The notes under the pieces were generated by a model. That model ran no database searches. It had not been told where the DNA came from and worked only from the letters and a program-made list of their open reading frames with translations. Below, piece by piece: positions 21,901-50,041 of a stretch of 64,000 nt of DNA. Origin of the DNA: a virus; the IMG/VR virus record IMGVR_UViG_3300024339_000012, positions 1 through 64,000 of that record; one strand, written 5' to 3'. Within the stretch, counting starts at the first letter, position 1, and every line of letters begins with the position of its first letter. A program made the translations under genes and the position numbers.

Positions 21901-24900
21901 AAGAACAAACTACGCAGCTGCTCACATGTTTACTCATTATAATGAAGCTAATGGAGTTTCTATTATCGGTGGGGAAGGGGGTTTTGACGGTACTACTTTA
22001 ACGGTAGGAGAAGAAACAAGTGCAAGTTCAGCCTTTAATTTATTTAGGGCAATTGCAGATACTAATGGAACTCCAATAACACAGTTTGTTGTGAGAGGTG
22101 ATGGATATACTGCTATTGGGCAGACTACACCTATTGACCAATTAACAGTTAAGTCTGCTAATTCAACAGGTATCACTTTGATTGATGGGAACAGCCGTAA
22201 ATTTATTCTGCGAAAAAGAACTACGGATAACTCAGCGACAATGTATGTTGACAATGGAACTGAGAGGGCATTTATGGTAGTTGGGGAAAGCAATACTTGG
22301 ATGCATCTTAAATCCGATGTTGTCAGCCTAACATCTACACCAGCCGATGCAGGTTCTACAGATGAAATTTTGAGAATTACTTCTGCGGGAGCAATTGTTG
22401 GTTCAAGCGTTACCGAACTCGCTGGAGATATAGGATTAACAGGCAATTATGTTCTGAAGTCTGGTGACAGTATGCAAGGACATCTTGTAATGGATAACCA
22501 AGTTGAAATTAGAAGTAAAAATGCTGCGTTAGGAGAAAGAACCTGGTTCAGATATATTGGGGATGATACCCTTGAATACTGGAATAGTTCTGGGAACATA
22601 AATGTAAAAGGAACGGGAGCATATCTATTTACCGTTGAAAGAGATTTATGGGTAAGCACACCAAATCCATTAATAAAACTTAATGACACATCGGGTTCAG
22701 CGGCAGATGCCCTAATTCAAGTTGAGGATAGCGAATTTAAAATAGGAACTGGTTCTGTTCCCACAATGTTTACCCTTGACTTAACCTCTGATGTAGGGAC
22801 TGCTTATTTCTACGGAAATATTGGGTTGAAGACTACTCCTGAAGATTGGTACAGTGCTGGTTCTGTAATAGAAGCACCCAAGACATCTTTCTTTATGGGG
22901 AATGTTACTGACATACACATGAACAGTAATGTTTACATAGCTGCTGCTGGAGGATGGAAATATAAGTCCTCAAATAAAGCAGCAAATTATTATCAATATT
23001 TAGGAGAACATTTTTGGAGAGTCGCTGGTAGCGGATTAACAGATGCAGCGGTAAACTGGAACTACGCTATGAAACTCCATAACTCCGGAAATCTATCTGT
23101 AGGGAATCAAACAGATAGCGGATACAAAGTTGACATTAGCGGTTCTTTTAGAGCAGGGACTAACACCGAAATGATTATTTCAGGTTCATATCCTTATACA
23201 GCCTCTATTATTAATTCAGCAAATGCTGGAAATGTTTATTTCCAAGCAGGCTCAACATTAGAAACTAAAATAATCTTGGGTGGACCGACCCACGCTGATG
23301 CTGGATTAGGAATTTACACTAACGCTATTGAGCGAATAAATGTGAATCTCGCTGGAGATGTTAACATAACTAATAGGCTTCTTATTAATAACGCATCTGA
23401 TGCCGCTTTAGCCAAATTATTAGTTGGAGATGCAATGCATACAGGTTCAGCAGCAATAGCCCAATTCGCAGGATTTATTCGTGTGATTGACCAAATAGGT
23501 TTTCACGGAACTTCAAGTGGGGAAGCTTGGTTGGGTGTTGATGCGTCAGCCTCAGCTTTTGATATGGATAAAGTATTAATCCATCCTGCCGCAACAGACC
23601 CAACACACTCAGCTTTACTATCACAAGTAACAAGTGCTGTATCAGGAATGGTTACAGGCACAGGAACAGCCTCTTATATACCAGTTTGGCAAGATGCGAA
23701 TACATTAGGTAATAGTGCAATGACCTCAGATGCCACGTACATAAACGTATTAAGCAGAAGATTTAAGGTTTCTACAGGAACAGCTACACTTACTTTAGGA
23801 CAGTGGGACGGTACAAATAATAGAATAGAATCAGCAAATATGCCTCTGTTCTTAACAACCTATACAGGAACAATTAAATTGGGTTTACTCGGAAGTGTAG
23901 GATATGAAATGCAGGCTGGAAGTAACCACGACTTCAAAAGTGGTACAGCTACTTTTGGTGGGACGGTTAGTATAACAAAGGGTACTGCCCTTAGGCTAAT
24001 ATCTGTATCAGCAGGTACACCTGTGAATATGGGATTTTTTGATGGCTCAACAGAGAAATGGAGATTGTATAAAGAAACAAATAATCATCTTTATCTATAC
24101 AATCCAACAACAAGCAAATTTCCTTTCCATATAGATCCCAGCGATAATATGTTCCTTAACGAAGATGCAGGGAATCTTAATGTTGGAATTAATACAGACC
24201 AAGGTTATCAATTACACGTACAGGGAACATCTAATAGCTTGGACGTAATAACAGGAGGCTTAAGGGTTACCGATAATAAAGCTACTGGCTACATTGCAGT
24301 TAGTGATGGTTCTGGAAACCTTATATGGACTGATCCAAGTGCTTATATCTATACTCTACCTGTAGCATCAGCATCAGTATTAGGTGGTGTTAAAATATCA
24401 TATGTTGGTACTCCACAAGAAATACCATTAGAAATTGCTGGTACAGATAAAGCATATATTACATTAACTAAAGCTGGTATTGAAGCTGTACTCACAGGAG
24501 CAATAACAACACACACTCATGCCGGTGGTGTAACAATTAACAATAATGCAGATAATAGATTAATCACAGGTTCTGGCACAGCTGATACTCTAAACGGAGA
24601 ATCTACCTTAACTTATAATGGTTCATCATTATTCCTCTTAGATGCAGCTACTAATGCCACTATCCAAGTTCAAAGTAATGAAGCTTCGGTTAATGGAACA
24701 TCATTCGTTGCAAAACACAGTAGGGCTGGCTCTTACTTACTAAGTGGTGACGCAATAGGCTCTTTTAACATGTATGACAGTCATGGCCATACTGCAGGAA
24801 TGTCTGCATATGCCACTCAGAACCATGCAAGCAGTGATTACGGGTCTGAATTAAGATTTATGACTACTATCATAGATGAGCAAACTGCATCGCTTAGAGC

Positions 24901-25413: not shown

Positions 25414-26046
25414 ATGTCAGTAGTAGTAGAGTCAATACAAATAATAGGCAGTTCAGCAACAACATTGTTGTTAACCTTCCTTGGATTTAAAGGAAAGTTT
25501 AGATTTGATAAGTTCGACACTAAACTTGAAAACCTGGAGATGAAAAATCAAGAAGAGTATGAACAGATCCAACGAACTATAGCCTATGTTAATTCAAGGG
25601 ATAGTTTAAGCCATGCACTTGCAAAAGTCTGTAATAGTAGTATTTCATATACAGTAGGAGATAATGACCTGAATACCTTTAAAACAATGTTCACTAACTC
25701 AATAATTAAGCTTGGTACTTCAACAGTACGTACAGGTTTTAAGCATTTGAATAAAGATATCTTTCATGGATACATGGTTGTAGGTGGTACTGAAATAAAA
25801 AAATCATACGCTGAATTGGATGATGTATTTACTGCTTTAGTGGATAATCATATTCAGGAAGCGTCTGAGGTTTACTATACTGGAATCCTTGCATTGATTA
25901 ACGATGATGTGTTTAACGACAAGTATGACAGGTTTGTTGATGCGACAATTTCTTTCCTAAGAACTGAGCTTATGATTATAACAAAACACTGGTGGAGTTA
26001 TAAAGCAATGAGTGACCCTATTATTGAAAAGGAGGCAAAAAAATAA
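25414..26046 (+). CDS. Unknown protein with N-terminal hydrophobic segment, 210 aa
   Basis: The frame is open from 25336, but that part overlaps the giant fibre gene, so the ATG at 25414 (MSVVVESIQIIGSSATTLLL) is preferred. It has a hydrophobic N-terminal helix (about residues 5-27), then a charged helical region (FDKFDTKLENLEMKNQEEYEQI). No family is recognised. It is the first gene of a run of small membrane-linked proteins leading into the lysis genes. A membrane-anchored lysis or superinfection protein is possible but inferred only from topology and position. Confidence 0.6.
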   Translation: MSVVVESIQIIGSSATTLLLTFLGFKGKFRFDKFDTKLENLEMKNQEEYEQIQRTIAYVNSRDSLSHALAKVCNSSISYTVGDNDLNTFKTMFTNSIIKLGTSTVRTGFKHLNKDIFHGYMVVGGTEIKKSYAELDDVFTALVDNHIQEASEVYYTGILALINDDVFNDKYDRFVDATISFLRTELMIITKHWWSYKAMSDPIIEKEAKK

Positions 26047-26054
26047 ATTCTTTA

Positions 26055-26062
26055 TATATTTG
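26055..26062 (+). promoter_or_regulatory. Bacteroidota-type -7 element TATATTTG
   Basis: TATATTTG at 26055-26062 fits TAnnTTTG and lies 28 bp before the ATG at 26090. No good -33 TTTG is found at 19-20 bp spacing, so this is a partial match. Confidence 0.5.
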
Positions 26063-26089
26063 CAATTAAATAAACTTAAAATCAAAACG

Positions 26090-26446
26090 ATGGGACTAAT
26101 TAATTCAAACGGTAACTATGCTATTATCACTAATACTGACAAGCATAGAGTAGATGTTCAGGTTTACAAAGACAAAGCAGAACACGATGCAGGGCTAAAT
26201 CCTTTCTTCGATACGTTCACTGCTGCATCTTTCCAATGTGGTGAAGACTTGAACACAAAATATAGTACAACTGGGGCCAGTGGTGCAGGTGGTAAAACTG
26301 TTGCTGACAATGTAATCTTAGCTGCTGAAGCATGTGTTGCTGAACAGGCTGCTGTTGATGCTGATCGTCACAGAGTAGCAAAGCATGTTGATGGAGCAAC
26401 CGAATATCTTGCTGGTGATTGGACTGTTTGGGCAGCTGCTGCCTAA
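26090..26446 (+). CDS. Small unknown protein with its own promoter, 118 aa
   Basis: The start at 26090 (MGLINSNGNYAII) is chosen because it follows a TATATTTG promoter element; the upstream in-frame ATG at 26012 lies inside the previous gene and before the promoter. The protein starts with a small beta-rich segment (VDVQVYKDKAEHDAG) and has an Ala-rich C-terminal half. No signal peptide or membrane segment. Function unknown; a separate promoter between fibre and lysis genes suggests an abundant product. Its stop overlaps the next start as TAATG. Confidence 0.6.
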   Translation: MGLINSNGNYAIITNTDKHRVDVQVYKDKAEHDAGLNPFFDTFTAASFQCGEDLNTKYSTTGASGAGGKTVADNVILAAEACVAEQAAVDADRHRVAKHVDGATEYLAGDWTVWAAAA

Positions 26447-26694
26447 TGTCCGAACCGGGCAACATAGAGCATCAAAAGACCTTTACTAACGCACAAGTAA
26501 TAAGGATAGTTATAGCAACCATTCTAATTACTTTTACGCTTACAGGTATCTTCTTTCGTTTTTTAGAGCTTGAGAAAGATATGAAATCTATGCAGACAAT
26601 TCATGACTTAGAAACTCAAGTTTTGAAAGATAAAATTGATTATGTTAATGAGAGATTATCACGTAAAATAGGAAAAGATGAACCAACTGATTGA
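26446..26694 (+). CDS. Single-pass membrane protein of the lysis block, 82 aa
   Basis: The start at 26446 (MSEPGNIEHQKTF) overlaps the upstream stop as TAATG, so it is preferred over the in-frame ATG at 26419. One membrane segment (VIRIVIATILITFTLTGIFF, about residues 19-38) is followed by a charged helix likely to form a coiled coil. The topology resembles small holin-associated or antiholin proteins. The end overlaps the next gene by 17 bp. Confidence 0.6.
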   Translation: MSEPGNIEHQKTFTNAQVIRIVIATILITFTLTGIFFRFLELEKDMKSMQTIHDLETQVLKDKIDYVNERLSRKIGKDEPTD

Positions 26695-27061
26695 TTACTT
26701 AAAAGAACTTGACTGGTTACTATTAGGGTTTATTGCCCTGTGTGGATTAGCCAATAGGTTATTCGACGAGTTACAAGACCATTCAATGACTAACAGGTGG
26801 ACAAAGTTCACTTGGTTTCTGAATACTAATGAGGGATGGAAAAGGAAGTGGAAAAAAGGCAGTACAACAATTCCTCGATTTTGGTTATCCTCTACAGCCC
26901 TCGTATTTGTCACTGATGGCGAACACCTTTTCCAATTCCTTAAAAATAGAATGATTGAAGTAGCCTTACTGATCATATGCTGGCAGTTTGCTGTTGTATG
27001 GATAGTTGGCTCAATACTCATGTCGTTCATTAAAGAGAAGTTCTTAAAAAGAGTACAATGA
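26678..27061 (+). CDS. Membrane protein of the lysis block, 127 aa
   Basis: Two or three hydrophobic stretches: LDWLLLGFIALCGLA (about 11-25), a weaker central one (FWLSSTALVFV) and a C-terminal pair (VALLIICWQFAVVWIVGSIL). A basic loop (GWKRKWKKG) separates them. No family is recognised. Between a single-pass protein and a two-pass holin-like protein it probably takes part in lysis timing. It overlaps the next start by 4 bp (ATGA). Confidence 0.6.
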   Translation: MNQLIDYLKELDWLLLGFIALCGLANRLFDELQDHSMTNRWTKFTWFLNTNEGWKRKWKKGSTTIPRFWLSSTALVFVTDGEHLFQFLKNRMIEVALLIICWQFAVVWIVGSILMSFIKEKFLKRVQ

Positions 27062-27312
27062 AACAGTCAATAATAAAAGATGAAAGAGGAAAGACCAGTA
27101 GCAAACGAGTTACAGGTCTTTTGCTCATTGTATATGCCTTGGTTGTGACTACACTTGATGGATTTGATTTCTTTGATGTAGATGCCACTATAATCATATC
27201 ATTACTATCCTTGGCTGCAGCTATGCTAAGTTTAGATTCAGTAACAGATATTTGGAAACAAAACTCAGGAAATAATGGCACGACAACGAACACTCAAGGG
27301 GAGCCGGACTAA
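27058..27312 (+). CDS. Putative holin, two membrane segments
   Basis: 84 aa with two closely spaced hydrophobic helices (VTGLLLIVYALVVTTLDGF about 18-36; TIIISLLSLAAAMLSL about 44-59), a charged N-terminus and a polar C-terminal tail. Size, topology and position directly before a DUF5675 candidate endolysin fit a holin. It overlaps both neighbours (ATGA upstream; 38 bp with the next gene). Confidence 0.6.
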   Translation: MKQSIIKDERGKTSSKRVTGLLLIVYALVVTTLDGFDFFDVDATIIISLLSLAAAMLSLDSVTDIWKQNSGNNGTTTNTQGEPD

Positions 27313-27739
27313 TTACTATTCTCGCACTACTATTGGAAAACTCCATGTAGAAGGACAGTATTTCGGTTTCACATTAGAAGATACCGTAAGACCTTTTGGT
27401 ATCAAACTCTACGGAGAAACAGCAATACCTGAAAATCCCATCGAGGGTTACAAAATAGGTATTCATTACTCAGCAAGATTCAAAAGAGAAGTTCTTATTA
27501 TTTATACCGAAGCCGATGGCAAGACACTCAAGTACGGGGGGATCTCCTTTGAGTACACTTACTTTCATGGTATGAATACTCACGAACATACTTTAGGCTG
27601 TGTTGGTATAGCTAAGAACCATAATGCAAATACTATTCAAGGCTCATTGGAAAAGGAACTATTTGATAAAGTAGCACCTTGGGTAAGAGCTGGTGATGAT
27701 GTTCGTTATTTCGTAGAGAACCAACCTCAAGCAGCATGA
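27275..27739 (+). CDS. DUF5675 family protein, candidate endolysin
   Basis: 154 aa. The N-terminal pattern IGKLHVEGQYFGFTLEDTVRP followed by KLYGETAIP, then the C-terminal HTLGCVGI, matches DUF5675, a family found in lysis modules of Bacteroidota phages. The conserved His and Cys in a TxGC setting suggest a peptidase or transpeptidase-like activity on peptidoglycan, but the activity of the family is not firmly established. No signal peptide, so export would depend on the holin. It follows the holin-like gene and precedes spanin-like genes, a classic lysis order. Confidence 0.75.
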   Translation: MARQRTLKGSRTNYYSRTTIGKLHVEGQYFGFTLEDTVRPFGIKLYGETAIPENPIEGYKIGIHYSARFKREVLIIYTEADGKTLKYGGISFEYTYFHGMNTHEHTLGCVGIAKNHNANTIQGSLEKELFDKVAPWVRAGDDVRYFVENQPQAA

Positions 27740-28074
27740 TACAAAAAAATCTATTCCTAATATGCGCCCTAATTGCTATGGGCATATTTGCTTACCTGTA
27801 TTTCACTAAGGAAACCCTAATTGTAAACACCGGTGATGCTGAGATACTGAAACTAAAAACTGAAATTTCCACTCTTGAAAATGCATACAATCTGGATATT
27901 GAAAGATTGCAGGATAGTATTGCCAGGGAAATACATGTAAAGGATTCAATCATAAAACAGAAGAATGTTAACTACTGGTACTTAAAAAAGAAGCATGAAA
28001 AAGAACTTGCTGATATTATGGATATGCCTATTGACAGTCTCTATAAGCTATTCTCAAGACTCACTACAGAGTAA
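27736..28074 (+). CDS. Putative inner-membrane spanin (Rz-like)
   Basis: 112 aa. An N-terminal membrane segment (LFLICALIAMGIFAYLYF, about 5-22) is followed by a periplasmic charged helical domain with coiled-coil character (LKTEISTLENAYNLDIERLQ). This is the Rz topology. It starts 4 bp before the DUF5675 stop, and a second, out-of-frame secreted gene starts inside its 3' end, the usual nested Rz/Rz1 layout. No sequence match is claimed. Confidence 0.55.
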   Translation: MIQKNLFLICALIAMGIFAYLYFTKETLIVNTGDAEILKLKTEISTLENAYNLDIERLQDSIAREIHVKDSIIKQKNVNYWYLKKKHEKELADIMDMPIDSLYKLFSRLTTE

Positions 28075-28399
28075 GAAATACTTTGTTACAGCAGACCAGC
28101 TCAGGGTATCTGTATTCAAGATGGTACGATTTGAGCAGTTAGAAATTGAAGTGGATTCTCTCGTTAAGATTAATGAAGACCTGTCCGTTTTAAACCTTGA
28201 CTATTTCAACCAGAGCGAGATTGATAAGCGTGCCATTGAGAACCTTAAAAAACGCGTTGTTCACTATAAAGATTACGTGGTCCGGGATAGTATTCAAGAT
28301 GTGAAAATAAAAAAAGATAATAAAAAGAAAAGAGTAAAGCAGGGTATAGTTGCTGTTTCTGCAGGTATAATTGTTGGACTATTATTGTCTTTGCTTTAA
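27995..28399 (+). CDS. Exported protein nested with the Rz-like gene, candidate spanin partner
   Basis: 134 aa starting inside the 3' end of the Rz-like gene in another frame (80 bp overlap). A signal peptide is clear (MKKNLLILWICLLTVSISYS, cleavage near residue 20), followed by a helical charged region and a C-terminal hydrophobic segment (GIVAVSAGIIVGLLLSLL). There is no lipobox Cys at the cleavage site, so it is not a standard Rz1 lipoprotein. The signal plus C-terminal anchor could still bridge membranes. Confidence 0.55.
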   Translation: MKKNLLILWICLLTVSISYSQDSLQSKKYFVTADQLRVSVFKMVRFEQLEIEVDSLVKINEDLSVLNLDYFNQSEIDKRAIENLKKRVVHYKDYVVRDSIQDVKIKKDNKKKRVKQGIVAVSAGIIVGLLLSLL

Positions 28400-28452
28400 A
28401 TGAAAATTAAGTACATTTACCAAATATTTATATAAATTAAATTCTCTCTCTA

Positions 28453-29496
28453 ATGAAAAAAATTATTATTAATGCAGATCTCGCTTTCATGCAGACTGCC
28501 CTACAGGGTAAAGGAATTAACTCCAAGCCAAAAGCCACACACAGGATCACCGTATCACGTAGACGTAAGCAAATAGATGCTGAATTAAAGCATATTGGCG
28601 AAGCTATGGCAGCTGACGACGACTACAAAGAATACATTACCGAACTTAAAGAATTAAAGGATAAGTACTGTGATAAAACCGAATCAGGTAAGCCTGTTGA
28701 GGAAGAAGTCGGCACCGGTAAGGAAAAAGTTAAAATCCCTGTTATTACCAAAAAGCTCGATACTTATATGAAAGCAATGCAGAACCTTAAAAAGAAACAT
28801 AAGGTTGCTATTGATAAGTACGATACTATTAATGAAACCTATGAAGAAAGTTTACTGGAAGTTGCTGATGTGAAACTCGCACCTGTTGTATTGGCTGACT
28901 TTGTACAGGAAAAAACAGCCTTCGGTGAACTGTTTGGTTTGTTCCCACTAATTGATGATTTTGAAGATGATAAACTGTTAAAGACCAAGGTTGATATTAC
29001 TCTTACTGTACGTGAGATAATGGGTCGTGAGAATGTGGTTGGACTATTCAGCCCTCAAACTGTCACACAGCTTAATTCATTCATTAATTGGGATCTTAAT
29101 CTTATACTTGCTTTTAACTTGAGATCAATACGTTCTCATGGATTTTTGATCAAAAAGGAAAAAGTATATGCCGATTACTTTGATGGTTACGAAAATAAAC
29201 GTAACAAGCTAATTATTAAGCATTCGAAAAAGAACATTGACGATATGCCAATAGTAAGTGAAAATAGCTATGTCCTTGAAGATGCATCATTATTCAACAA
29301 GGAAATGGCTGTACTTGAAAAAGAGTCAAAAGGTATTATAAAAGCCTTTGATAAATTCTTAGACAAGGAAATAATAGTCAAAGCTGTAATGATTCCTGAT
29401 GTTCTGTTAACAGAGCTTGATAAATTACTTGAAGACGATGAATTCAAGATAAGTATCCAGCAGTCTGACATTCTCGACTATTTTGTAAAAATTTAG
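28453..29496 (+). CDS. Unknown protein, 347 aa
   Basis: Soluble and highly charged. Residues about 30-140 are helical with coiled-coil character and a Lys/Glu-rich insert (KPVEEEVGTGKEKVKIP). The rest mixes helices with a hydrophobic core (FGELFGLFPLIDDF). No family is recognised. It stands alone between the lysis and glycosyltransferase units. The leader has TTCTCTCTCTA directly before the ATG, a string also found before the gene at 60976. Confidence 0.6.
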   Translation: MKKIIINADLAFMQTALQGKGINSKPKATHRITVSRRRKQIDAELKHIGEAMAADDDYKEYITELKELKDKYCDKTESGKPVEEEVGTGKEKVKIPVITKKLDTYMKAMQNLKKKHKVAIDKYDTINETYEESLLEVADVKLAPVVLADFVQEKTAFGELFGLFPLIDDFEDDKLLKTKVDITLTVREIMGRENVVGLFSPQTVTQLNSFINWDLNLILAFNLRSIRSHGFLIKKEKVYADYFDGYENKRNKLIIKHSKKNIDDMPIVSENSYVLEDASLFNKEMAVLEKESKGIIKAFDKFLDKEIIVKAVMIPDVLLTELDKLLEDDEFKISIQQSDILDYFVKI

Positions 29497-29517
29497 TTTA
29501 GAACAGAATAATTTCTT

Positions 29518-29525
29518 TACTTTTG
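29518..29525 (+). promoter_or_regulatory. Bacteroidota-type -7 element TACTTTTG
   Basis: TACTTTTG at 29518-29525 fits TAnnTTTG and lies 26 bp before the glycosyltransferase ATG. The -33 region shows only a weak TTTAG near 29492. Confidence 0.5.
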
Positions 29526-29551
29526 TTTCATATATATATAAAATTTATGAA

Positions 29552-31432
29552 ATGAAAGAAAAAACAATTTGCCTTACATTTATCTGCAAAGACAACGAAG
29601 ACACTATCAAAAGAATGATTGATAGTTGTCTTCCTCTTGTCGACGAGATCATTGCCTGTGACACCGGATCAAAAGACGACACAGTAAAACTGATCCATAA
29701 ATTCAAAAAAAACCTCCCCGTAACCACATACTACCACAAATGGAAGAATTTCGGTCATAACCGAACCCTTATGATGCAAGCAGCTGCTAAGTCCAAATGC
29801 GATTATATATTAGTAATGGACAGCGACGAAAAGATGATGCATTTAGAATCCTTTGATTTTAAGAATATGGTTGGTGACGTTGTTATGATAAAAACTGTTT
29901 CAGGTAGCATGGAATACTATAGAGACAGGATGTTCAAAAATAGCCATGACTGGAAATGGATAGGCTATGCCCACGAGTACCCACATTCAGAAACATTCAA
30001 ACTAAAGCAGCATGCCAAATCAATACAGCTCGAACTGTATCCTAAACATAACTCAAACCACATTACCCGTAACTACAACCTATTACAGGAAGAGGAAAAA
30101 GACGGCCTCGCAACTTCAAGAACATATTTCTACTTAGGACAATCTGCTAAAGACCTCGGCTTACTTAATGAAGCTTTGGAATATTACATGAAGTGTATTG
30201 GTCTTGCAATTTGGGATCAGGAAAAGTTCTTTGCATTGTATGACATTGCCAGGATAAATCATCAGCTAAATAAATTCGATATTGCTCAGGAGTATTATCT
30301 CAAAGCACATGAAGTATTACCTGAAAGGGCAGAGCCTTTATATAATCTCGCTAAGTGCCTAAGAGAGCAGGAACTATACAATCAAGCACTAATATATTTA
30401 AAAGTCGCTTTAGGCATTCCTATTCCATCTGATGGACTATTCCTTGAGTGGGCTGTATATAAGTATTTGATCGAATTTGAAATGTCAATTTGCAGTTACT
30501 GGACAGAAGATTATATGAAAGCATTAATCTGTTCTAAAAAGGTAAAAGAAACGATTACAGCTGACAAAATATCTGATCATGGGGTAGAAGTACAAAATCT
30601 AAAGAACATATCATATACCCGTCTTAAATTGATTGCTCAGGGAAATTTGGACATACTTATAATAGAGCTTCCTGAAGGATATGACGGACTTGGTGATCAT
30701 TTGTTATTTTCACACATTCCGGAACTTGCAAAAAAGAAAGGTTTTAAGGAAGTTCTTGTAAGTGACCATAACAAATATAAGACTGCAGGAACTAAAGAAG
30801 CAGTATGGGAAACCAATCCTTTTGTTGATGGATTCATTGATGAGAGAGGAACCCACTTTGATGCAGCACAGCTATTCGAAATACTCAACGGTAAACCTAT
30901 TGTAAATAACATGCCAATGCTTAAACAGATATCAATGGTCTATGATGTGTACGATGATGACTACAATGGTTTGCCAATACTGTATATGGGTGAAAGAAAG
31001 TCTGTATTTGACAATGTACAGGAACTTGTTGATTTAGAAATGAAAAAAACAAGAGAGGGTAAAAATAAACACTTGTTTTATGATGGTAACTGGAAGCATT
31101 ATGCCGGTATTGAACAGAAAGATGTGGATGATTATTTTTTAACAAATTCTGAAATATATGACCTTGAATATCCTGTTAAGTATCAGGCTGAAAATTTAGG
31201 AAGTTGTTTAACTGCAAAAGTTCTTGGAATGGATGAATGGGAAACGGGAACACTTGAAACCTACATACTAAGAATACTTGCCTGTCACAGATTCATATGC
31301 CTTATGTCAGGTGGAAGTGTTGTATCCGCAGCGATAGGAAAACCATGTGTTGTTATTGATGATAAATCAAGTAGCAAATACTATAAATTTCCACAGATTA
31401 ATTTTTATTTATCCGATATACCAGATGCTTAA
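29552..31432 (+). CDS. Two-domain glycosyltransferase with TPR linker
   Basis: 626 aa. Residues 1-100 are a GT-A family 2 domain: the start ICLTFICKDNEDTIKRMIDS, the CDTGSKDDT nucleotide-sugar loop (36-44) and the metal-binding DSDE (90-93). Residues about 170-300 contain TPR-like helical repeats (YFYLGQSAKDLGLLNEALEY, AEPLYNLAKCLREQELY). The C-terminal part from about 375 looks like a GT-B, heptosyltransferase (GT9)-like domain (GYDGLGDHLLFSHIPELAKK; near the end CLMSGGSVVSAAIGKP). It overlaps the next methyltransferase gene by 8 bp. Likely adds sugars to phage structural proteins, DNA or host surface glycan; the acceptor cannot be read from sequence. Confidence 0.8.
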   Translation: MKEKTICLTFICKDNEDTIKRMIDSCLPLVDEIIACDTGSKDDTVKLIHKFKKNLPVTTYYHKWKNFGHNRTLMMQAAAKSKCDYILVMDSDEKMMHLESFDFKNMVGDVVMIKTVSGSMEYYRDRMFKNSHDWKWIGYAHEYPHSETFKLKQHAKSIQLELYPKHNSNHITRNYNLLQEEEKDGLATSRTYFYLGQSAKDLGLLNEALEYYMKCIGLAIWDQEKFFALYDIARINHQLNKFDIAQEYYLKAHEVLPERAEPLYNLAKCLREQELYNQALIYLKVALGIPIPSDGLFLEWAVYKYLIEFEMSICSYWTEDYMKALICSKKVKETITADKISDHGVEVQNLKNISYTRLKLIAQGNLDILIIELPEGYDGLGDHLLFSHIPELAKKKGFKEVLVSDHNKYKTAGTKEAVWETNPFVDGFIDERGTHFDAAQLFEILNGKPIVNNMPMLKQISMVYDVYDDDYNGLPILYMGERKSVFDNVQELVDLEMKKTREGKNKHLFYDGNWKHYAGIEQKDVDDYFLTNSEIYDLEYPVKYQAENLGSCLTAKVLGMDEWETGTLETYILRILACHRFICLMSGGSVVSAAIGKPCVVIDDKSSSKYYKFPQINFYLSDIPDA

Positions 31433-42951: not shown

Positions 42952-42959
42952 CAAAGGTA
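42952..42959 (-). promoter_or_regulatory. -7 element TACCTTTG upstream of the SF2 helicase
   Basis: On the minus strand TACCTTTG (42959 down to 42952) fits TAnnTTTG and lies 25 bp before the helicase ATG. It directly touches a 15-bp hairpin. No TTTG is found at the -33 position. Confidence 0.45.
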
Positions 42960-43005
42960 GCCTTTTTATTTCACATAACGGTTAATTAAATGAAATAAAA
43001 AGGCT
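42959..43005 (-). terminator. 15-bp perfect hairpin after the ThiF gene
   Basis: 42959-42973 pairs fully with 42991-43005 (AGCCTTTTTATTTCA and its complement), loop 17 nt. It follows the E1-like gene stop by 6 bp. The T-run is inside the stem, so termination efficiency is uncertain; an mRNA-stabilising 3' end is another option. Confidence 0.6.
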
Positions 43006-43011
43006 GAGTAT

Positions 43012-43818
43012 TTATACACTCATGGCTGTTATCGGTTGACTCTTTTCAAGGTCAATGAAATATCCATGATGTTTAATTTGGTGATCTTTGACAAGTTGCC
43101 ATATGATCTTTGCAGCATAAGTTGCTACAATAGAATTAATGAAAGGGTCTTGTCTTTTCAAGGCTTCGAATGTACTACAGCTTGCTTCTTTATCTTCAGA
43201 TTCAGATGCTTTATTCAGGTCATTACTGCTGAACACATCAAATATCCCGCGCAGTCTTTTCTTATAACCTTTGCCGGGCTGTTTAATATCTGCAGTAGTT
43301 CCACAAATTACCTGACCTTTATCGTATGAGTTACCACAATCAATGTGATAGTATATCTGATCAGAATTATGATATCCATGCCTATATGTACTCGGACCTT
43401 TAATGATATGATCCATTTCAAATCTTGCTGACACATTATCAACACAGCACACATTGAAGTTAGACGCCTTATACACTATATGATCAAAATCATCACTGTA
43501 CTTCATGTATCTGTCAATAGCAGACCAGTTAAATCCAAAGTTCCTGTTTATGCGCTCGATGGTTGTACTTGCCTTTTGCTTTCCAATATCTTCCACATAA
43601 TACAGCTGTCTACCAACATTAGAATCAGAAACTATATCACCATCAATGACTGTAACATGTAGTCCTACATGATCAAGTTTTCTAAGCATGATGTTCATTC
43701 TGACAAGTTCAGAAATTAGCCTGGTACCGGTTCCTCCACATCCTACGATTGTAATAGAAATTACTTCGTCAGGATTCGTGATCTTTGCAGGAGCAAAGTG
43801 TGTATAAGTCTTTTTCAT
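43012..43818 (-). CDS. PRTRC system ThiF/E1-like adenylyltransferase
   Basis: 268 aa. Nucleotide-binding GCGGTG (26-31), the acidic VIDGDIV (57-63), SNVGRQLY (66-73) with the N and R-Q of E1/ThiF enzymes, DIGKQKA (77-83), CCVDNVSAR (124-132) and a candidate catalytic Cys in EASCSTFEA (C214) before FINSIVATYAAKI. E1-like enzymes adenylate the C-terminus of a ubiquitin-like protein and pass it on as a thioester. It overlaps the E2-like gene by 4 bp (ATGA) and closes the PRTRC operon. Partners would be the ubiquitin-like protein at 45785 and the E2-like protein at 43815. Confidence 0.85.
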   Translation of the reverse strand: MKKTYTHFAPAKITNPDEVISITIVGCGGTGTRLISELVRMNIMLRKLDHVGLHVTVIDGDIVSDSNVGRQLYYVEDIGKQKASTTIERINRNFGFNWSAIDRYMKYSDDFDHIVYKASNFNVCCVDNVSARFEMDHIIKGPSTYRHGYHNSDQIYYHIDCGNSYDKGQVICGTTADIKQPGKGYKKRLRGIFDVFSSNDLNKASESEDKEASCSTFEALKRQDPFINSIVATYAAKIIWQLVKDHQIKHHGYFIDLEKSQPITAMSV

Positions 43819-44537
43819 ATTAAATCTCCTATCGTTTTATCGTGAGGAATTATTGGCAACAGCCTTATTTCTTTCTTTTTGATATACATATTCCAAGCGT
43901 CTACAAATGTCTTAGGCTTGAATGATTTCTTATACATATCCATTTGCTTATTCATGTGCGTAAATGGACTCTTGAAGAATATCTGTTCCCAATGAATCAG
44001 GAACTCAGCAATAGACTTACATTCATAAAGAGTCATGATATTCTGTGACCCTAAACAAACATTATCTTTGTAATCAACATTCATAAATGGAGTAGGATAC
44101 AGAATAGTATCCATTCCTTCATTTTCCTTTGCGAAATATACATTCAGGTCTCTCTCGCTGGCATGAAATACCATCGCGGGTATCATTATATCATATCTGC
44201 CCTGCTTAATAGTTCCGTATCTATTAACTATTACTGTACGAATACATTTCTCAACGTACCATATGGCATTGTCATAGCTTTTTAGATTAAAGTAAATCAA
44301 GCCTTTTGGAATCTGATTATAAGTAACAGCACTATTCTTTATTAGCACCTCGTCTTTCTGTATGAGAATGGTTAACATGTTCTGAAGTATCTTAGCCTCA
44401 AATGGCCTGAATGAATTATCATTCTCACCTTTCATTTCAGCATAACAAACAGTATTGGCACCATTCTCATAGAAACGCATTTCTGTTTTGAGTGACATTT
44501 TACCAACGGGAATGTCTACGATTTTCTTTTTTTCCAT
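43815..44537 (-). CDS. PRTRC system protein B (prokaryotic E2-like)
   Basis: 240 aa. The central IPAMVFHASERDLNVYFAK (119-137), followed by YPTPFMNVDYKDNVCLG with C161, matches PRTRC protein B, a family classed with prokaryotic E2-like folds; the conserved Cys would be the thioester site. From family knowledge it works with the E1-like and ubiquitin-like proteins of the same cassette. The start overlaps the upstream gene by 38 bp and the stop overlaps the E1 gene by 4 bp, so all are translationally coupled. Activity is inferred. Confidence 0.75.
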   Translation of the reverse strand: MEKKKIVDIPVGKMSLKTEMRFYENGANTVCYAEMKGENDNSFRPFEAKILQNMLTILIQKDEVLIKNSAVTYNQIPKGLIYFNLKSYDNAIWYVEKCIRTVIVNRYGTIKQGRYDIMIPAMVFHASERDLNVYFAKENEGMDTILYPTPFMNVDYKDNVCLGSQNIMTLYECKSIAEFLIHWEQIFFKSPFTHMNKQMDMYKKSFKPKTFVDAWNMYIKKKEIRLLPIIPHDKTIGDLI

Positions 44538-45588
44538 GTTTCTTGTTTATGAAATTATTAACCATTTTACCATTTACAAATTCATTTGCATCTAAGAACC
44601 TGTTTGCTATGTATGCTATTCCGCCATTCCTCCAAATTGGTTTGCAATCTGTTTTCTTTCCGGGCTTATGCAATACAGACCTCATGAACGGATATACATA
44701 TACATTCTTAGAATTCTTAATACCATGCCAATCATGCATTGTTAATCCACCTTTTGTACATGACCAAACAAATTTAATCCTGTGCTGATTATCTGCAAGT
44801 TTCATATTCTCAGCATTACAAAAATCAAGTATTACATCATCAACATTGTACTTAGATAATTTGAATGAATCTCTATTAAATATGCTGTATAATTTCTTCT
44901 GCAGCTTTCGTACTGTTCCAAACTTCCTTTCTTTCTTAAAGTATGCAGTTATTGATGATTTCCTCATAGTAGCGCCTTTATTGAGTAATTTGATAGCACG
45001 ACTAAGTTCCGGAGTTTCTTCACGACCTTGCATATATTCCTTGAAATAAGGATCATTTGCAGGACAGTATAGTTCAAAGTTTTTAGACATCCATCCAATT
45101 GCTTTGAACATATCGTCAACAAATTCAGGATCTCTTTCCTTTATGCTGTAGATTATATCCAATGGTATTGTCGATGCTAATTCAAGCCATGTAAAACAAT
45201 CTGTTATCATTACAGCAAGTCGTACATCATATGATTTTTCACAGTAATACTGTACAAATTCATATGTATAACTGAACGTATCCAATGGAACGTAAAAGTT
45301 ATGCCTGATCTTTATATCACAAGCATCCCTTGTCATCTTAATTATTCGATGTGATTTGAATCCTTTATTGAAATACTTAATAATTGTATCGAATACATCC
45401 AACCAAGACCTACTACTTGAAAATTCAGTTATAATAGGCAGTTTAGGATTGAGTCTGCAATACAGGTTATAAGCATCCTTAATAAGAACTTGTGGGGCTA
45501 TCTGGAGTAATTCTTTATTATTGCCAACATCAAGCATCCCCGGCTTTGCGTTTGTACCCATTAGGGCCATTATGTTATTTATGCTCAT
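44500..45588 (-). CDS. PRTRC-cassette protein, candidate protein F
   Basis: 362 aa, mostly helical and basic, with no membrane segments. Length and position between PRTRC C and B fit PRTRC protein F, but I cannot confirm it by motif. Segments such as CDIKIRHNFYVPLDTFSYTY and the C-terminal NGGIAYIANRFLDANEFV stand out. It overlaps the upstream 66-aa gene by 4 bp (ATGA) and protein B by 38 bp. Confidence 0.5.
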   Translation of the reverse strand: MSINNIMALMGTNAKPGMLDVGNNKELLQIAPQVLIKDAYNLYCRLNPKLPIITEFSSSRSWLDVFDTIIKYFNKGFKSHRIIKMTRDACDIKIRHNFYVPLDTFSYTYEFVQYYCEKSYDVRLAVMITDCFTWLELASTIPLDIIYSIKERDPEFVDDMFKAIGWMSKNFELYCPANDPYFKEYMQGREETPELSRAIKLLNKGATMRKSSITAYFKKERKFGTVRKLQKKLYSIFNRDSFKLSKYNVDDVILDFCNAENMKLADNQHRIKFVWSCTKGGLTMHDWHGIKNSKNVYVYPFMRSVLHKPGKKTDCKPIWRNGGIAYIANRFLDANEFVNGKMVNNFINKKHGKKENRRHSRW

Positions 45589-45785
45589 GGTAGTTCCTGT
45601 TTAAGTTCAGCTATTGGAAGTATTCTCTTTTCCTTCATAACCTGATCAGTAGTGTGTCTGTCGTGGTATTTCAAATGATTGGTCTCTTTAATGATCAATG
45701 ATATTTTTATACCACTTTCCTTAATAGAAAAAGGCAGGTCAATCAACCTGCCTTCTGTCTGTTTAAAATACTCTTCGATTTTCAT
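45585..45785 (-). CDS. Unknown small protein inside the PRTRC cassette, 66 aa
   Basis: Shares a TAATG overlap with PRTRC C upstream and an ATGA overlap with the candidate F gene downstream, so it is translated as part of the cassette. Basic and mixed alpha-beta (GIKISLIIKETNHLKYHDRH). No family is recognised. The His-rich stretch could bind metal, but there is no known motif. Confidence 0.6.
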   Translation of the reverse strand: MKIEEYFKQTEGRLIDLPFSIKESGIKISLIIKETNHLKYHDRHTTDQVMKEKRILPIAELKQELP

Positions 45786-45988
45786 TACCCTTTAGGTTTA
45801 AATGATAATGTAAATACGTATTCAGCTTTTCCTGTCTTGTATTCAGGGCCTTTTATGGTCGCTGTTGCAAGTTCCGGAAACTGATTAGCATAGAAGCTCT
45901 GGACTTCTTTCGGAGACATGTTCGGATTTGGATCCGTTAAGTCTTTCTTTTCAAACTTGAAAACTCGAGGTATAGTCTTAGTCGCCAT
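45785..45988 (-). CDS. PRTRC system protein C (ubiquitin-like)
   Basis: 67 aa. The start IPRVFKFEKKDLTDPNPNMS, followed by EVQSFYANQFPELATATIKG and a C-terminal AEYVFTLSFKPKG, matches PRTRC protein C, a family related to prokaryotic ubiquitin-like proteins. It ends in an exposed single Gly, as needed for activation by an E1 enzyme. Full length for the family. It lies 9 bp after PRTRC E and is coupled to the next gene by TAATG. Confidence 0.85.
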   Translation of the reverse strand: MATKTIPRVFKFEKKDLTDPNPNMSPKEVQSFYANQFPELATATIKGPEYKTGKAEYVFTLSFKPKG

Positions 45989-45997
45989 AGTCGTAGT

Positions 45998-46582
45998 TTA
46001 AAAGTCATCTTCAATATCATTATTCATACCAGCAAATGCATCACCTTTTTCTTCAGGTTCAACTGCTTTTGGTTCAACAACCTTTTCAGCTGCTTTTTCA
46101 AGTGGAGCTTTTGGTTTTTCTTTAACCTCTTCTTCAACCTGTTTGAACATATCACCAGTTTCACCTGTTGGAGCAACCTTTTCCTTAACTTCTTCCACTG
46201 CTTTCACATCAGTCTTAGTTTCAGTAGTTTTAGTTTCAGTAGTCTTTGGAACAGGTTTCTTTCGTGGTGTGGTAGTCTTTGTGCCAGTAGCTTTCTTTTG
46301 CTTCTCGTCTGCAACTCTTTTGATTTGCTTATCGAAAAACTCTACATTGTCAGTCATTTCAACAACTTTATTCAATGATGGTTTTAAAGCATCATAGAAG
46401 TTATCTTCTAACTGTTCGGGAGTGCCTGATATTACTAAATTAGGCATGTGAGTATCTTTGTCCTTTGACTTAAAGAATATAGCCATAGTGACAATTCCAT
46501 TCTTACTTGAGAATATGATATTCATATCCAACTTCTCACAATAGTCGGATATGAATTCAAAAAACGTAGGTATATTTTCCAT
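45998..46582 (-). CDS. PRTRC system protein E
   Basis: 194 aa. The N-terminal 100 residues (TFFEFISDYCEKLDMNIIFS, then PNLVISGTPEQLEDNFYDAL) fit PRTRC protein E, which has a small alpha-beta domain with a conserved GTPEELxxxF signature. A long low-complexity Lys/Thr/Glu linker (about 100-175) follows, then the acidic tip MNNDIEDDF. The tip resembles that of the SSB-like protein at 37162. The start overlaps the upstream stop as TAATG. Function of the family is unknown. Confidence 0.8.
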   Translation of the reverse strand: MENIPTFFEFISDYCEKLDMNIIFSSKNGIVTMAIFFKSKDKDTHMPNLVISGTPEQLEDNFYDALKPSLNKVVEMTDNVEFFDKQIKRVADEKQKKATGTKTTTPRKKPVPKTTETKTTETKTDVKAVEEVKEKVAPTGETGDMFKQVEEEVKEKPKAPLEKAAEKVVEPKAVEPEEKGDAFAGMNNDIEDDF

Positions 46583-47610
46583 TACGGTAGTCCTTGTTCG
46601 TTAGTTTCACCAGATTTATCTTTATCCTCTTCTTCAAGAGTATTTGGAGTAGGCTCATCTTCCATGATGTCCTTAGCATTTTCAGCATCTTCTTTTTCAA
46701 GATCAATAACTTCAATTATTTCGCCCAGGCGATATCTGTCAGTAAAGAATTTACCGGTTGCAGCAGATTGAATTATTCTTGCTTCTAATCTGTTACTGGA
46801 AGAGGTTACAGCTGTTATGTGATTAAAGAAATCCCACAACGGTACGAGGTTGTCACCTTTGTCATCATAAGAAAGCATATTTGCAGCAAGTTTGGAACAT
46901 TCGCTTATGTTCAATGGTACTTCAAGAGTACTGTCAATATAAGCACCTTTAACCGCAAGTGATAGTAAGCTACCAAGGATGCTGTTTCTCTCTGTTATAG
47001 CAGGTACGCGCATCATAATAAGCCTATTAATGAATGCACCCTGTTCTTGCCAAAACTCTTTGATATTATCAATACGCTTTTCAATCAATTCAAGAATGTG
47101 ACTGAAATCCATACCGTCTTTACCATAATTTCTGAAGATGTGATTAGCACCCATTATAGTGAAGTTTGAGCATATTGTAACACGAGCACCAACACCAAAG
47201 ATAAAACCCTTTTCATTCTGAGTAATACCAATAACAAGACCAATCTCATCATTAGTAAACTCACCAAGTACTCTTATCGAGCATATCATTTCACGAATGA
47301 TAGTAACGGTTGTGTCATTAACCTCAACAAGATCTTTAGATTCTGGATTGTCCTTGAGGGCTCTTTTGTTCATTCGATCAACTTGCTTCTGTGTTCCTGG
47401 AATTGTTCCTTTTTCGGTTATGAATAAATCACACACCTCGAAAGGTATTTTCCTTGAGTCAAGCATATCAGTTATTTCAGCGATAACATCATAATGCGAC
47501 ATTGGAAATTTCTTTTCATTTTGGTTACGATAGTCCGCAGACTTCTCCAAAGTCTCAAGATCAATTTCCATTACTTTTTGGCCTTCACCAAAGACAATTT
47601 GTTTTTGCAT
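46582..47610 (-). CDS. Unknown protein heading the PRTRC operon, DUF932-like pattern
   Basis: 342 aa, no membrane segment. The central GLVIGITQNEKGFIFGVGAR followed by TICSNFTIMGANHIFRNYG recalls the strand-turn-strand core of DUF932 proteins of phages and plasmids (which share a CSNGxxxG-like motif), but the match is loose. The C-terminal 60 residues are acidic. It is coupled to PRTRC E by TAATG and preceded by a leader carrying the TTATTTTT element, so transcription of the cassette probably starts here. Confidence 0.5.
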   Translation of the reverse strand: MQKQIVFGEGQKVMEIDLETLEKSADYRNQNEKKFPMSHYDVIAEITDMLDSRKIPFEVCDLFITEKGTIPGTQKQVDRMNKRALKDNPESKDLVEVNDTTVTIIREMICSIRVLGEFTNDEIGLVIGITQNEKGFIFGVGARVTICSNFTIMGANHIFRNYGKDGMDFSHILELIEKRIDNIKEFWQEQGAFINRLIMMRVPAITERNSILGSLLSLAVKGAYIDSTLEVPLNISECSKLAANMLSYDDKGDNLVPLWDFFNHITAVTSSSNRLEARIIQSAATGKFFTDRYRLGEIIEVIDLEKEDAENAKDIMEDEPTPNTLEEEDKDKSGETNEQGLP

Positions 47611-49585: not shown

Positions 49586-50041
49586 TTAGTGAATTAATCC
49601 TTCATCTGCAAATGAATAATATTTATAATTCTCTGATGAGAGTATTATATGGTCAAGCAACCTAATGCTAAAATAGTTTAATGCTTTCTTAATATTATTA
49701 GTTATTCTTATGTCTTGATCACTGGGTTTCATTCTTCCCGATGGATGGTTATGACATAGTATAACTGCTACACATAATGATTCAATAGCATATTTAGTTA
49801 TTAATCTTTCATCAACGACTGTGCCCATGAGACCTCCTTGACTTATCTTAACCCAACCAATAGTATTGTTAGCACTGTTAAGGAATACGGTAAAGAAACT
49901 CTCATAGATAGCAATATCATCATGATAGAACTGCCTTGCATATTCATCAATATCTCCTGACTTAGTAATTTTTACTTTTTTAATATTTGTTGGTTCTTTA
50001 ACTAATCTGTACTGTGGTGTATTTGATTTATAAGTTTTCAT
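49586..50041 (-). CDS. RadC-like JAMM/MPN+ domain protein
   Basis: 151 aa, a single domain. The JAMM metal-binding motif CHNHPSGRMKPSDQD (H97, H99, D110) is intact, with an upstream acidic residue candidate in IAIYESFF (E47). RadC-family proteins are common on phages and mobile elements; the fold is shared with de-ubiquitinating JAB proteases. In many PRTRC cassettes a JAB protein is a member; here it is 2 kb upstream of the cassette, so a role in processing the ubiquitin-like protein is possible but unproven. The leader contains a 33-bp exact repeat. Confidence 0.8.
   Translation of the reverse strand: MKTYKSNTPQYRLVKEPTNIKKVKITKSGDIDEYARQFYHDDIAIYESFFTVFLNSANNTIGWVKISQGGLMGTVVDERLITKYAIESLCVAVILCHNHPSGRMKPSDQDIRITNNIKKALNYFSIRLLDHIILSSENYKYYSFADEGLIH

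What the first reader, a model, noticed from the sequence alone, without database searches (positions are those of the whole stretch)
43012..47610. A phage carries a PRTRC ubiquitin-like conjugation cassette
Seven overlapping minus-strand genes encode, in order, a DUF932-like protein, PRTRC E, PRTRC C (ubiquitin-like, C-terminal Gly), a 66-aa protein, a candidate PRTRC F, PRTRC B (E2-like, C161) and a ThiF/E1-like enzyme (GCGGTG, SNVGRQ, C214). Six junctions are overlaps of 1-38 bp. PRTRC cassettes are known from plasmids and integrative elements; their function is unknown. In a lytic-type early region next to replication genes it could modify host or phage proteins during takeover, or mark DNA-replication proteins.
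Basis: partly seen in the sequence, partly recalled or inferred. Interest (0 to 1): 0.9.

Follow-up and report, generated by a model that had tools for sequence, protein, structure and literature searches.

The report
Ubiquitin-like tagging cassette in a phage
A crAss-like virus of bacteria carries an apparently intact set of genes for attaching a small ubiquitin-like protein to other proteins, a set known mainly from plasmids; related phages carry the same set, often directly beside the gene for the ring that holds the copying machinery on DNA, so the tag may act on DNA replication.

Summary
Confirmed, with corrections. The window is part of an 89-kb crAss-like phage record. Window 43012-47610 (minus strand) holds a PRTRC cassette (ParB-related, ThiF-related): E, ubiquitin-like C, a small gene (here "S"), a candidate F, E2-like B and E1/ThiF. 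A DUF932-like gene stands in front and a terminator-like hairpin follows. C and ThiF pass their NCBIfam cut-offs; C, B and ThiF pass Pfam's; E only just passes Pfam's. Catalytic residues are conserved: ThiF C214, B N153, C161 and H194, C Gly67. F is supported mainly by position. PRTRC A (JAB) and ParB are absent.

The phage location is not unique. At least 113 IMG/VR contigs carry relatives, including several unrelated tailed phages, a second crAss-like phage and the isolated Burkholderia phage BgVeeders33, where it is unannotated. I found no paper in the held library describing PRTRC in phages.

Two observations go further. The small gene between C and F is a conserved, apparently overlooked member with a hydrophobic C-terminal tail. 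In 22 fetched PRTRC loci a beta sliding clamp gene (dnaN) lies nearby, often within 20 nt of the cassette; plasmids have parB upstream. I propose conjugation of C to a DNA-bound replication or partition factor. Chemistry is likely, the target inferred; this record has no detectable dnaN.

The parts
46582..47610 (-). 342-aa DUF932-like protein with acidic C-terminal tail; first gene of the run, in the slot held by ParB (plasmids) or DnaN (many phages) elsewhere. Membership of the cassette uncertain.
   Evidence: No convincing HMM hit itself; relatives L196/L197 (22-24% identity) score just below the DUF932 cut-off; overlaps E by 1 bp.
45998..46582 (-). PRTRC E (194 aa, charged low-complexity C-terminal half)
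   Evidence: PF19556 26.4 bits (cut-off 26), TIGR03741 below cut-off; BLAST to E of other loci; position directly before C.
45785..45988 (-). PRTRC C, ubiquitin-like modifier, 67 aa, ends ...KPKG with no processing needed
   Evidence: PF14454 79.3 bits, TIGR03738 68.6 bits, both over cut-off; terminal Gly invariant.
45585..45785 (-). Small conserved cassette gene between C and F (named S here), 66 aa, tail RILPIAELKQELP
   Evidence: No HMM; same slot and similar C-terminal tail in most loci; dN/dS 0.10-0.38 in 13 usable pairs of relatives.
44500..45588 (-). Candidate PRTRC F, 362 aa, predicted mostly helical
   Evidence: Position and length; weak collinear match to Bacteroidota F profile, score 30.3 versus 12-24 for control proteins; low-confidence helical model, pLDDT 57.
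43815..44537 (-). PRTRC B, E2-like (Prok-E2_D), Asn153-x7-Cys161 active site, His194
   Evidence: PF14460 71.7 bits; invariant N153 and C161; AlphaFold model pLDDT 81.4.
43012..43818 (-). PRTRC ThiF, E1-like adenylating enzyme, GCGGTG loop, predicted thioester Cys214
   Evidence: TIGR03736 198.5 bits; invariant catalytic residues; profile matches NEDD8/ubiquitin E1 structures best.
42959..43005 (-). 16-bp-stem hairpin just after the ThiF stop, probable transcription terminator of the cassette
   Evidence: RNA fold of the stretch -22.6 kcal/mol, z-score -6.9.

Best explanation
The locus is a PRTRC-type E1-E2-ubiquitin-like conjugation cassette (the operon type of row 6d in Iyer et al. 2006), in the Bacteroidota form that lacks the JAB protein A, carried in the early replication region of a crAss-like phage. 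Inferred mechanism: ThiF adenylates the C-terminal Gly67 of C and holds it as a thioester on Cys214; the modifier passes to Cys161 of E2-like B, with Asn153 as the oxyanion residue; it is then attached to a lysine of a target protein, with F, E and S as specificity or scaffold subunits. The most likely target is a DNA-bound replication or partition factor, such as a sliding clamp, ParB or helicase, rather than a host-takeover target. Shown: gene content, order, active-site residues, recurrence in phages, linkage to dnaN and parB in other loci. Inferred: activity, order of transfer, target. Rough probabilities: protein conjugation 0.75; target in DNA replication or partition 0.4.
For: HMM matches; invariant E1, E2 and Ubl residues; H194 agrees with the conserved His C-terminal to the Cys that Iyer 2006 describes for this operon type (PMC1779556); conserved order in phages, plasmids and bacterial chromosomes; phage identity. 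Target: dnaN in 22 fetched PRTRC loci, 4-20 nt upstream of E in 12 of them, between C and S in L015/L095, and overlapping the ThiF stop by 4 nt in crAss-like G014/L031; the ThiF tree needs 9 changes to explain adjacent dnaN. dnaB-like in 16, parB-like in 14 and radC-like in 9 of 95 non-redundant loci (clusters named by their sequences and members). In the window the neighbours are a ResIII helicase, a Toprim-domain primase-helicase-like protein, an AAA_24 ATPase, uracil-DNA glycosylase and RadC. Phage dnaN is otherwise rare: 79 of 50,697 phage records at the tblastn threshold used, against 14 of 80 PRTRC-bearing IMG/VR loci.
Against: The window record has no detectable DnaN, ParB, PolA or PolB, and its upstream gene is DUF932-like of unknown function, so the clamp link is not shown in this phage. 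Seven dnaN-bearing phage-labelled records show no PRTRC nearby, so the association runs one way only. Location in a replication region could be mere convenience. Foldseek matches of B to E2s are weak (E above 0.1). The dnaN base rate and the PRTRC count come from different collections and methods. No close relative covers the cassette, so selection on it could not be measured in this lineage.
Confidence: 0.6

Rival explanations
1. Superinfection exclusion: the cassette is a defence module, like Bil, Bub or type II CBASS, and tags proteins of competing phages or plasmids.
For: Related E1-E2-Ubl systems (CBASS Cap2, Bil) act against phages (PMC10097602; Bil and Bub cited in PMC13373217); ThiF has weak PADLOC E1-E2 and BilD matches.
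Against: PADLOC matches are low (at most 32 bits) and only in the shared adenylation domain; no PADLOC match for B, C or F; neighbours in many loci are replication or partition genes; no toxin or effector recognised in the cassette.
Confidence: 0.2
2. Anti-defence or host takeover: C is attached to host proteins (defence sensors, RNA polymerase, host replisome) early in infection.
For: Position in the early-type gene block next to replication genes.
Against: The same cassette is in plasmids and chromosomally carried elements that do not kill the host, which favours an element-maintenance role.
Confidence: 0.15
3. Virion or structural protein modification: C is attached to a structural protein during assembly.
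For: A diverged set in Salmonella phage Arash (E1-like, JAB, very weak E2-like) has members annotated 'structural protein'.
Against: The Arash annotation is of unknown basis, its E2-like match is below cut-off and no C was recognised there; in the window the cassette lies in the replication block on the opposite strand to the structural genes.
Confidence: 0.08
4. Sulfur transfer rather than conjugation: ThiF makes a C-thiocarboxylate used in a small-molecule or nucleic-acid modification.
For: ThiF/MoeB relatives do this (established knowledge); PAPS-reductase-family genes lie near some plasmid PRTRC loci.
Against: Conserved E1 Cys214 in its SCS motif and an E2-like partner with an invariant Asn-x7-Cys site; the ThiF profile is closer to NEDD8/ubiquitin E1s than to ThiF/MoeB; no sulfur gene among the window proteins scanned.
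Confidence: 0.1

Closest known systems
PRTRC (ParB-related, ThiF-related) cassettes of plasmids; NCBIfam TIGR03736/03737/03738/03741 and Pfam PF14454/PF14460/PF19556
   Same: E, C, B and ThiF homologues in the same order; same catalytic residues; candidate F.
   Different: Here in a crAss-like phage; no ParB and no JAB protein A; B and E below the NCBIfam cut-offs; DUF932-like gene in the ParB slot.
Operon type 6d of Iyer, Burroughs and Aravind 2006 (PMC1779556)
   Same: Ub-like, E1-like, E2-like with a conserved His after the Cys, and a diverging helical protein; includes Bacteroides.
   Different: JAB missing here; no phage listed in the row as quoted; the small S gene is not listed there.
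Burkholderia phage BgVeeders33 (OK665841) genes at 25952-30438
   Same: E-C-S-F-B-ThiF order in an isolated phage.
   Different: Has JAB protein A between B and ThiF; 33.5% identity in ThiF; a 33-kb phage, not crAss-like; all but ThiF deposited as hypothetical proteins.
IMG/VR contig 3300029268_000010 (G014/L031, 90.5 kb)
   Same: crAss-type terminase and portal PHROGs with E-C-S-F-B-ThiF.
   Different: DnaN directly downstream of ThiF; terminase only about 23% identical to the window's.
Type II CBASS Cap2/Cap3 and Bil/Bub systems
   Same: Bacterial E1-E2 ubiquitin-like conjugation logic.
   Different: Defence operons; E1 and E2 fused in Cap2; different gene families; a dedicated protease is usual.

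Membership tests
PRTRC system | ThiF/E1 of family TIGR03736 | tested here: met
   198.5 bits, cut-off 144.75
PRTRC system | Ubiquitin-like C (TIGR03738 / PF14454) with terminal Gly | tested here: met
   68.6 and 79.3 bits, over cut-offs; Gly67
PRTRC system | E2-like B (TIGR03737 / PF14460) | tested here: met
   PF14460 71.7 bits over cut-off 25; TIGR03737 71.3 bits, E 7e-20, below its own cut-off 131.45
PRTRC system | Protein E (PF19556 / TIGR03741) | tested here: inconclusive
   PF19556 26.4 versus 26; TIGR03741 26.8 versus 37.95; position and BLAST to other E proteins agree
PRTRC system | Protein F | tested here: inconclusive
   No curated match; weak collinear profile match above control proteins
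PRTRC system | JAB protein A | tested here: not met
   B and ThiF overlap directly; only JAB-like hit in the record is RadC. A is also absent from the Bacteroidota loci examined, so it is not universal
PRTRC system | ParB-related protein | tested here: not met
   No PF02195 match in the 89-kb record; parB also found in only 14 of 95 non-redundant loci. I therefore file it as a variant of the PRTRC cassette, not as the full plasmid system
Operon type 6d (Iyer 2006) | E2-like protein with a conserved His C-terminal to the Cys | tested here: met
   H194, at least 90% of rows in A8
Ubiquitin-like conjugation | E2 fold of B | tested here: inconclusive
   Pfam E2 family match and Asn-x7-Cys site; confident model, but best Foldseek E2 match E 0.26, TM at most 0.40
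Ubiquitin-like conjugation | Covalent protein conjugates formed | not testable with these tools
   Needs biochemistry
Bil / Bub / CBASS defence | Match to defence-system models across the cassette | tested here: not met
   Only the shared E1 domain of ThiF matches such systems, weakly
Crassvirales (host genome of the cassette) | crAss-type terminase, portal, capsid | tested here: met
   PHROG matches; terminase tblastn hits are crAss-like phages or unnamed phage records

The most novel reading that the evidence does not exclude
PRTRC is a mobile-element system that attaches a ubiquitin-like protein to DNA-encircling clamps (DnaN in phages, ParB in plasmids) to control replication or repair, a prokaryotic counterpart of PCNA ubiquitylation and SUMOylation, with the small S protein as an adaptor whose C-terminal tail docks on its partner.
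Probability: 0.2. Interest if true: 0.95.

Novelty: new variant of a known kind. Interest (0 to 1): 0.62.

Why it matters
PRTRC cassettes are widespread (372 plasmid records with a ThiF match) and I found no study of their function in the held library. Finding them in unrelated phages, including one isolated phage, gives a tractable experimental system. Repeated placement of dnaN beside or inside the cassette, and parB in plasmids, points to a testable class of substrates. A conserved small gene that the models used here do not cover is an added component to test.

Tried and rejected
(1) Single-protein scans of viral contigs with window ThiF and C found no relatives; a 4-sequence alignment was needed. 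(2) A 9-sequence ThiF alignment was too diverse to search with. (3) PF03237 terminase as a test of phage identity of the contigs was too insensitive; replaced by PHROGs. (4) ThiF phylogeny does not place the window (long branch, no supported group). (5) Close relatives found by major capsid protein (L198, L199) do not show the cassette: no ThiF match, and similarity ends around 53 kb of the record, so absence cannot be told from contig ends or divergence. (6) Whether the 342-aa protein is a diverged clamp: no profile match to DnaN. (7) Reverse test, phage dnaN to PRTRC: negative in seven records, most of them short unverified fragments. (8) beta-clamp-binding motif in S tails: 6 of 76 fit a loose pattern versus 0.4 in shuffles, but the pattern was chosen after seeing the tails and differs from the published motif, so it is not used as evidence. 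(9) Bacteroidota promoter motif TAnnTTTG is not enriched, so it says nothing about the host. (10) Structure of F too poor for a fold search.
Full report
WHAT THE WINDOW IS. The window is bases 1-64000 of an 89,236-bp IMG/VR virus record. Terminase, portal and major capsid match PHROG head and packaging families. All named terminase hits in GenBank phages are crAss-like phages at about 22% identity, so the record is a divergent crAss-like phage. G+C is even across 36-56 kb, with no composition break at the cassette.

THE OBSERVATION. The seven ORFs are present as described. Five junctions overlap (1, 1, 4, 38 and 4 bp) and E-C is a 9-nt gap, so 'six overlaps' is slightly wrong. ThiF and C pass both curated NCBIfam and Pfam cut-offs; B passes Pfam Prok-E2_D but not the stricter NCBIfam cut-off; E is marginal. 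F, the 66-aa and the 342-aa proteins match no model convincingly. A hairpin with a 16-bp stem follows ThiF at about 42959-43005, so the cassette has a natural end there.

ACTIVE SITES. Among 9 ThiF proteins (26-35% identity to the window's), the GxGG loop, N67, R70, Q71, K82, D127 and C214 are invariant. Among 31 B proteins, N153 and C161 are invariant and H194 is in at least 90%. An Asn eight residues before the Cys is the spacing of the HPN motif of eukaryotic E2s (own knowledge), and a His after the Cys is the feature that Iyer et al. (PMC1779556) give for this operon type. C ends in an invariant Gly. The ThiF profile matches NEDD8 and ubiquitin E1 structures better than ThiF or MoeB. No solved structure resembles B or C by sequence. 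The AlphaFold model of B is confident (pLDDT 81); E2 enzymes recur among its Foldseek matches, but with E above 0.1, so the fold test alone is inconclusive.

HOW WIDESPREAD. tblastn finds PRTRC ThiF relatives in 372 plasmid records, but C in only two of 50,697 phage records: Burkholderia phage BgVeeders33 and a fecal fragment. In BgVeeders33 all of E-C-S-F-B-A-ThiF is present; only ThiF carries a functional name, the rest are hypothetical. IMG/VR yields 113 related contigs; in the 80 kept, C, B and ThiF are nearly always together and in fixed order. About 23 of these resemble BgVeeders33, with DnaB at 50-98% identity. Other carriers have phage hallmarks of different kinds: G015 and G010 (terminase, portal, tape measure), G002 (major head protein, tape measure), G005 (tape measure, tail protein, integrase), and G014, whose terminase and portal match the same PHROGs as the window's. 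PRTRC in phages is therefore recurrent. Bacterial genomes, mainly Bacteroidota and Pseudomonadota in this scan, carry it too. The ThiF tree does not resolve where the window belongs.

A SMALL CASSETTE GENE. In most loci a short ORF sits between C and F, often overlapping the C stop by 1 or 4 nt. In 76 non-redundant candidates, 48 end in Phe or Pro (7.2 expected from shuffled sequences, maximum 18 in 2000) and 66 have a Pro near the end (34.7 expected). Typical tails are RLRLPSADLPVLP, RQPLLPPSAPLLF, IAAPSGAVILF and RRQLPSSQIPFIP; the window's is RILPIAELKQELP. Nei-Gojobori dN/dS is 0.10-0.38 in 13 usable pairs. I conclude that this is a real gene of the cassette (here S); some of the 76 picks are spurious, as the selection was by position alone. 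Its function is unknown.

LINK TO DNA CLAMPS. Pfam identifies the gene directly upstream of E as the DNA polymerase III beta clamp in four loci over cut-off (L016, L018, L027, L034) and weakly in L019. A profile built from these finds DnaN in 22 PRTRC loci: 4-20 nt before E in 12 loci (about 9 after removing duplicates), between C and S in L015/L095, and overlapping the ThiF stop by 4 nt in crAss-like G014/L031 (PF00712 29.3 bits, cut-off 24.4). On the ThiF tree adjacency needs 9 changes, so it was probably gained or lost repeatedly, and in three different positions. In plasmids the upstream slot holds ParB, a family that includes DNA-sliding clamps such as KorB (KorB as a clamp: PMC11790492, abstract; its family membership is own knowledge). 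DnaB, RadC, an AAA ATPase and helicases also recur nearby, and RadC, AAA_24 and a ResIII helicase are near the cassette in the window. DnaN is rare in GenBank phages at the threshold used (79 of 50,697), against 14 of the 80 IMG/VR loci; the methods differ, so this is an indication, not a measured enrichment. Seven phage-labelled records with DnaN had no PRTRC, so clamps do not imply PRTRC.

WHAT THIS DOES NOT SHOW. The window's own record has no match to DnaN, ParB, PolA or PolB. Its upstream gene is DUF932-like, supported by two relatives just under the DUF932 cut-off, and has no profile match to DnaN. The clamp hypothesis for this phage is thus by analogy; it could act on the host clamp or another protein. 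The record may be incomplete. No conjugation has been demonstrated.

VERDICT. A genuine PRTRC conjugation cassette, a JAB-less and ParB-less variant, in a crAss-like phage. It is a new variant of a known kind; the phage occurrence appears unreported in the held library, which lacks most subscription journals. The most useful new points are its recurrence in unrelated phages, the conserved S gene, and the linkage to sliding-clamp genes.

Noticed in passing
window 49586-50041: RadC-like JAB-domain protein (PF04002 120.6 bits) 2 kb upstream of the cassette on the same strand. In L100 a RadC protein 45% identical to it ends 66 nt before PRTRC E, so RadC might replace JAB protein A in A-less cassettes.
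   Followed up: partly
L004 7949-8239 and similar ORFs in L081, L083, L131, L135: A conserved Cys-rich, zinc-ribbon-like small protein lies just upstream of PRTRC E in BgVeeders33-like phages; a possible E3-like or DNA-binding partner.
   Followed up: no
L005 375-4539 (Salmonella phage Arash) and L007 (Vibrio phage D69): A diverged module with an E1/ThiF-like protein, a Prok-JAB protein (over cut-off) and, in Arash, a very weak Prok-E2_D match; in Arash two of these genes are annotated 'structural protein'. Not PRTRC by the tests here.
   Followed up: partly
L008 15450-17259 (Tunicatimonas pelagia plasmid): The plasmid with the closest PRTRC ThiF also carries a second ubiquitin-like system (multiubiquitin protein, ThiF-family enzyme, DUF6527 protein) about 7 kb away.
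   Followed up: no
L015 6335-7953: In a Sphingobacterium mizutaii element dnaN and other short ORFs are inserted between PRTRC C and the S gene, that is, inside the cassette.
   Followed up: yes
L180 10869-14045 (G014): The crAss-like terminase ORF is 1058 aa; its N-terminal half also matches primase and DnaC-like helicase-loader PHROGs, its C-terminal half crAss-type terminase.
   Followed up: no
L023, L026, L029, L040, L076 about 1-6 kb after ThiF: A shared gene block after PRTRC includes an amidoligase-family protein (phrog_2443 in L076) and, by sequence, dehydrogenase-like and ATP-grasp-like proteins.
   Followed up: no
window 12956-25390 and 186-8984: Giant ORFs of 4144 and 2932 aa; the former has two tail-fibre PHROG matches.
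   Followed up: no
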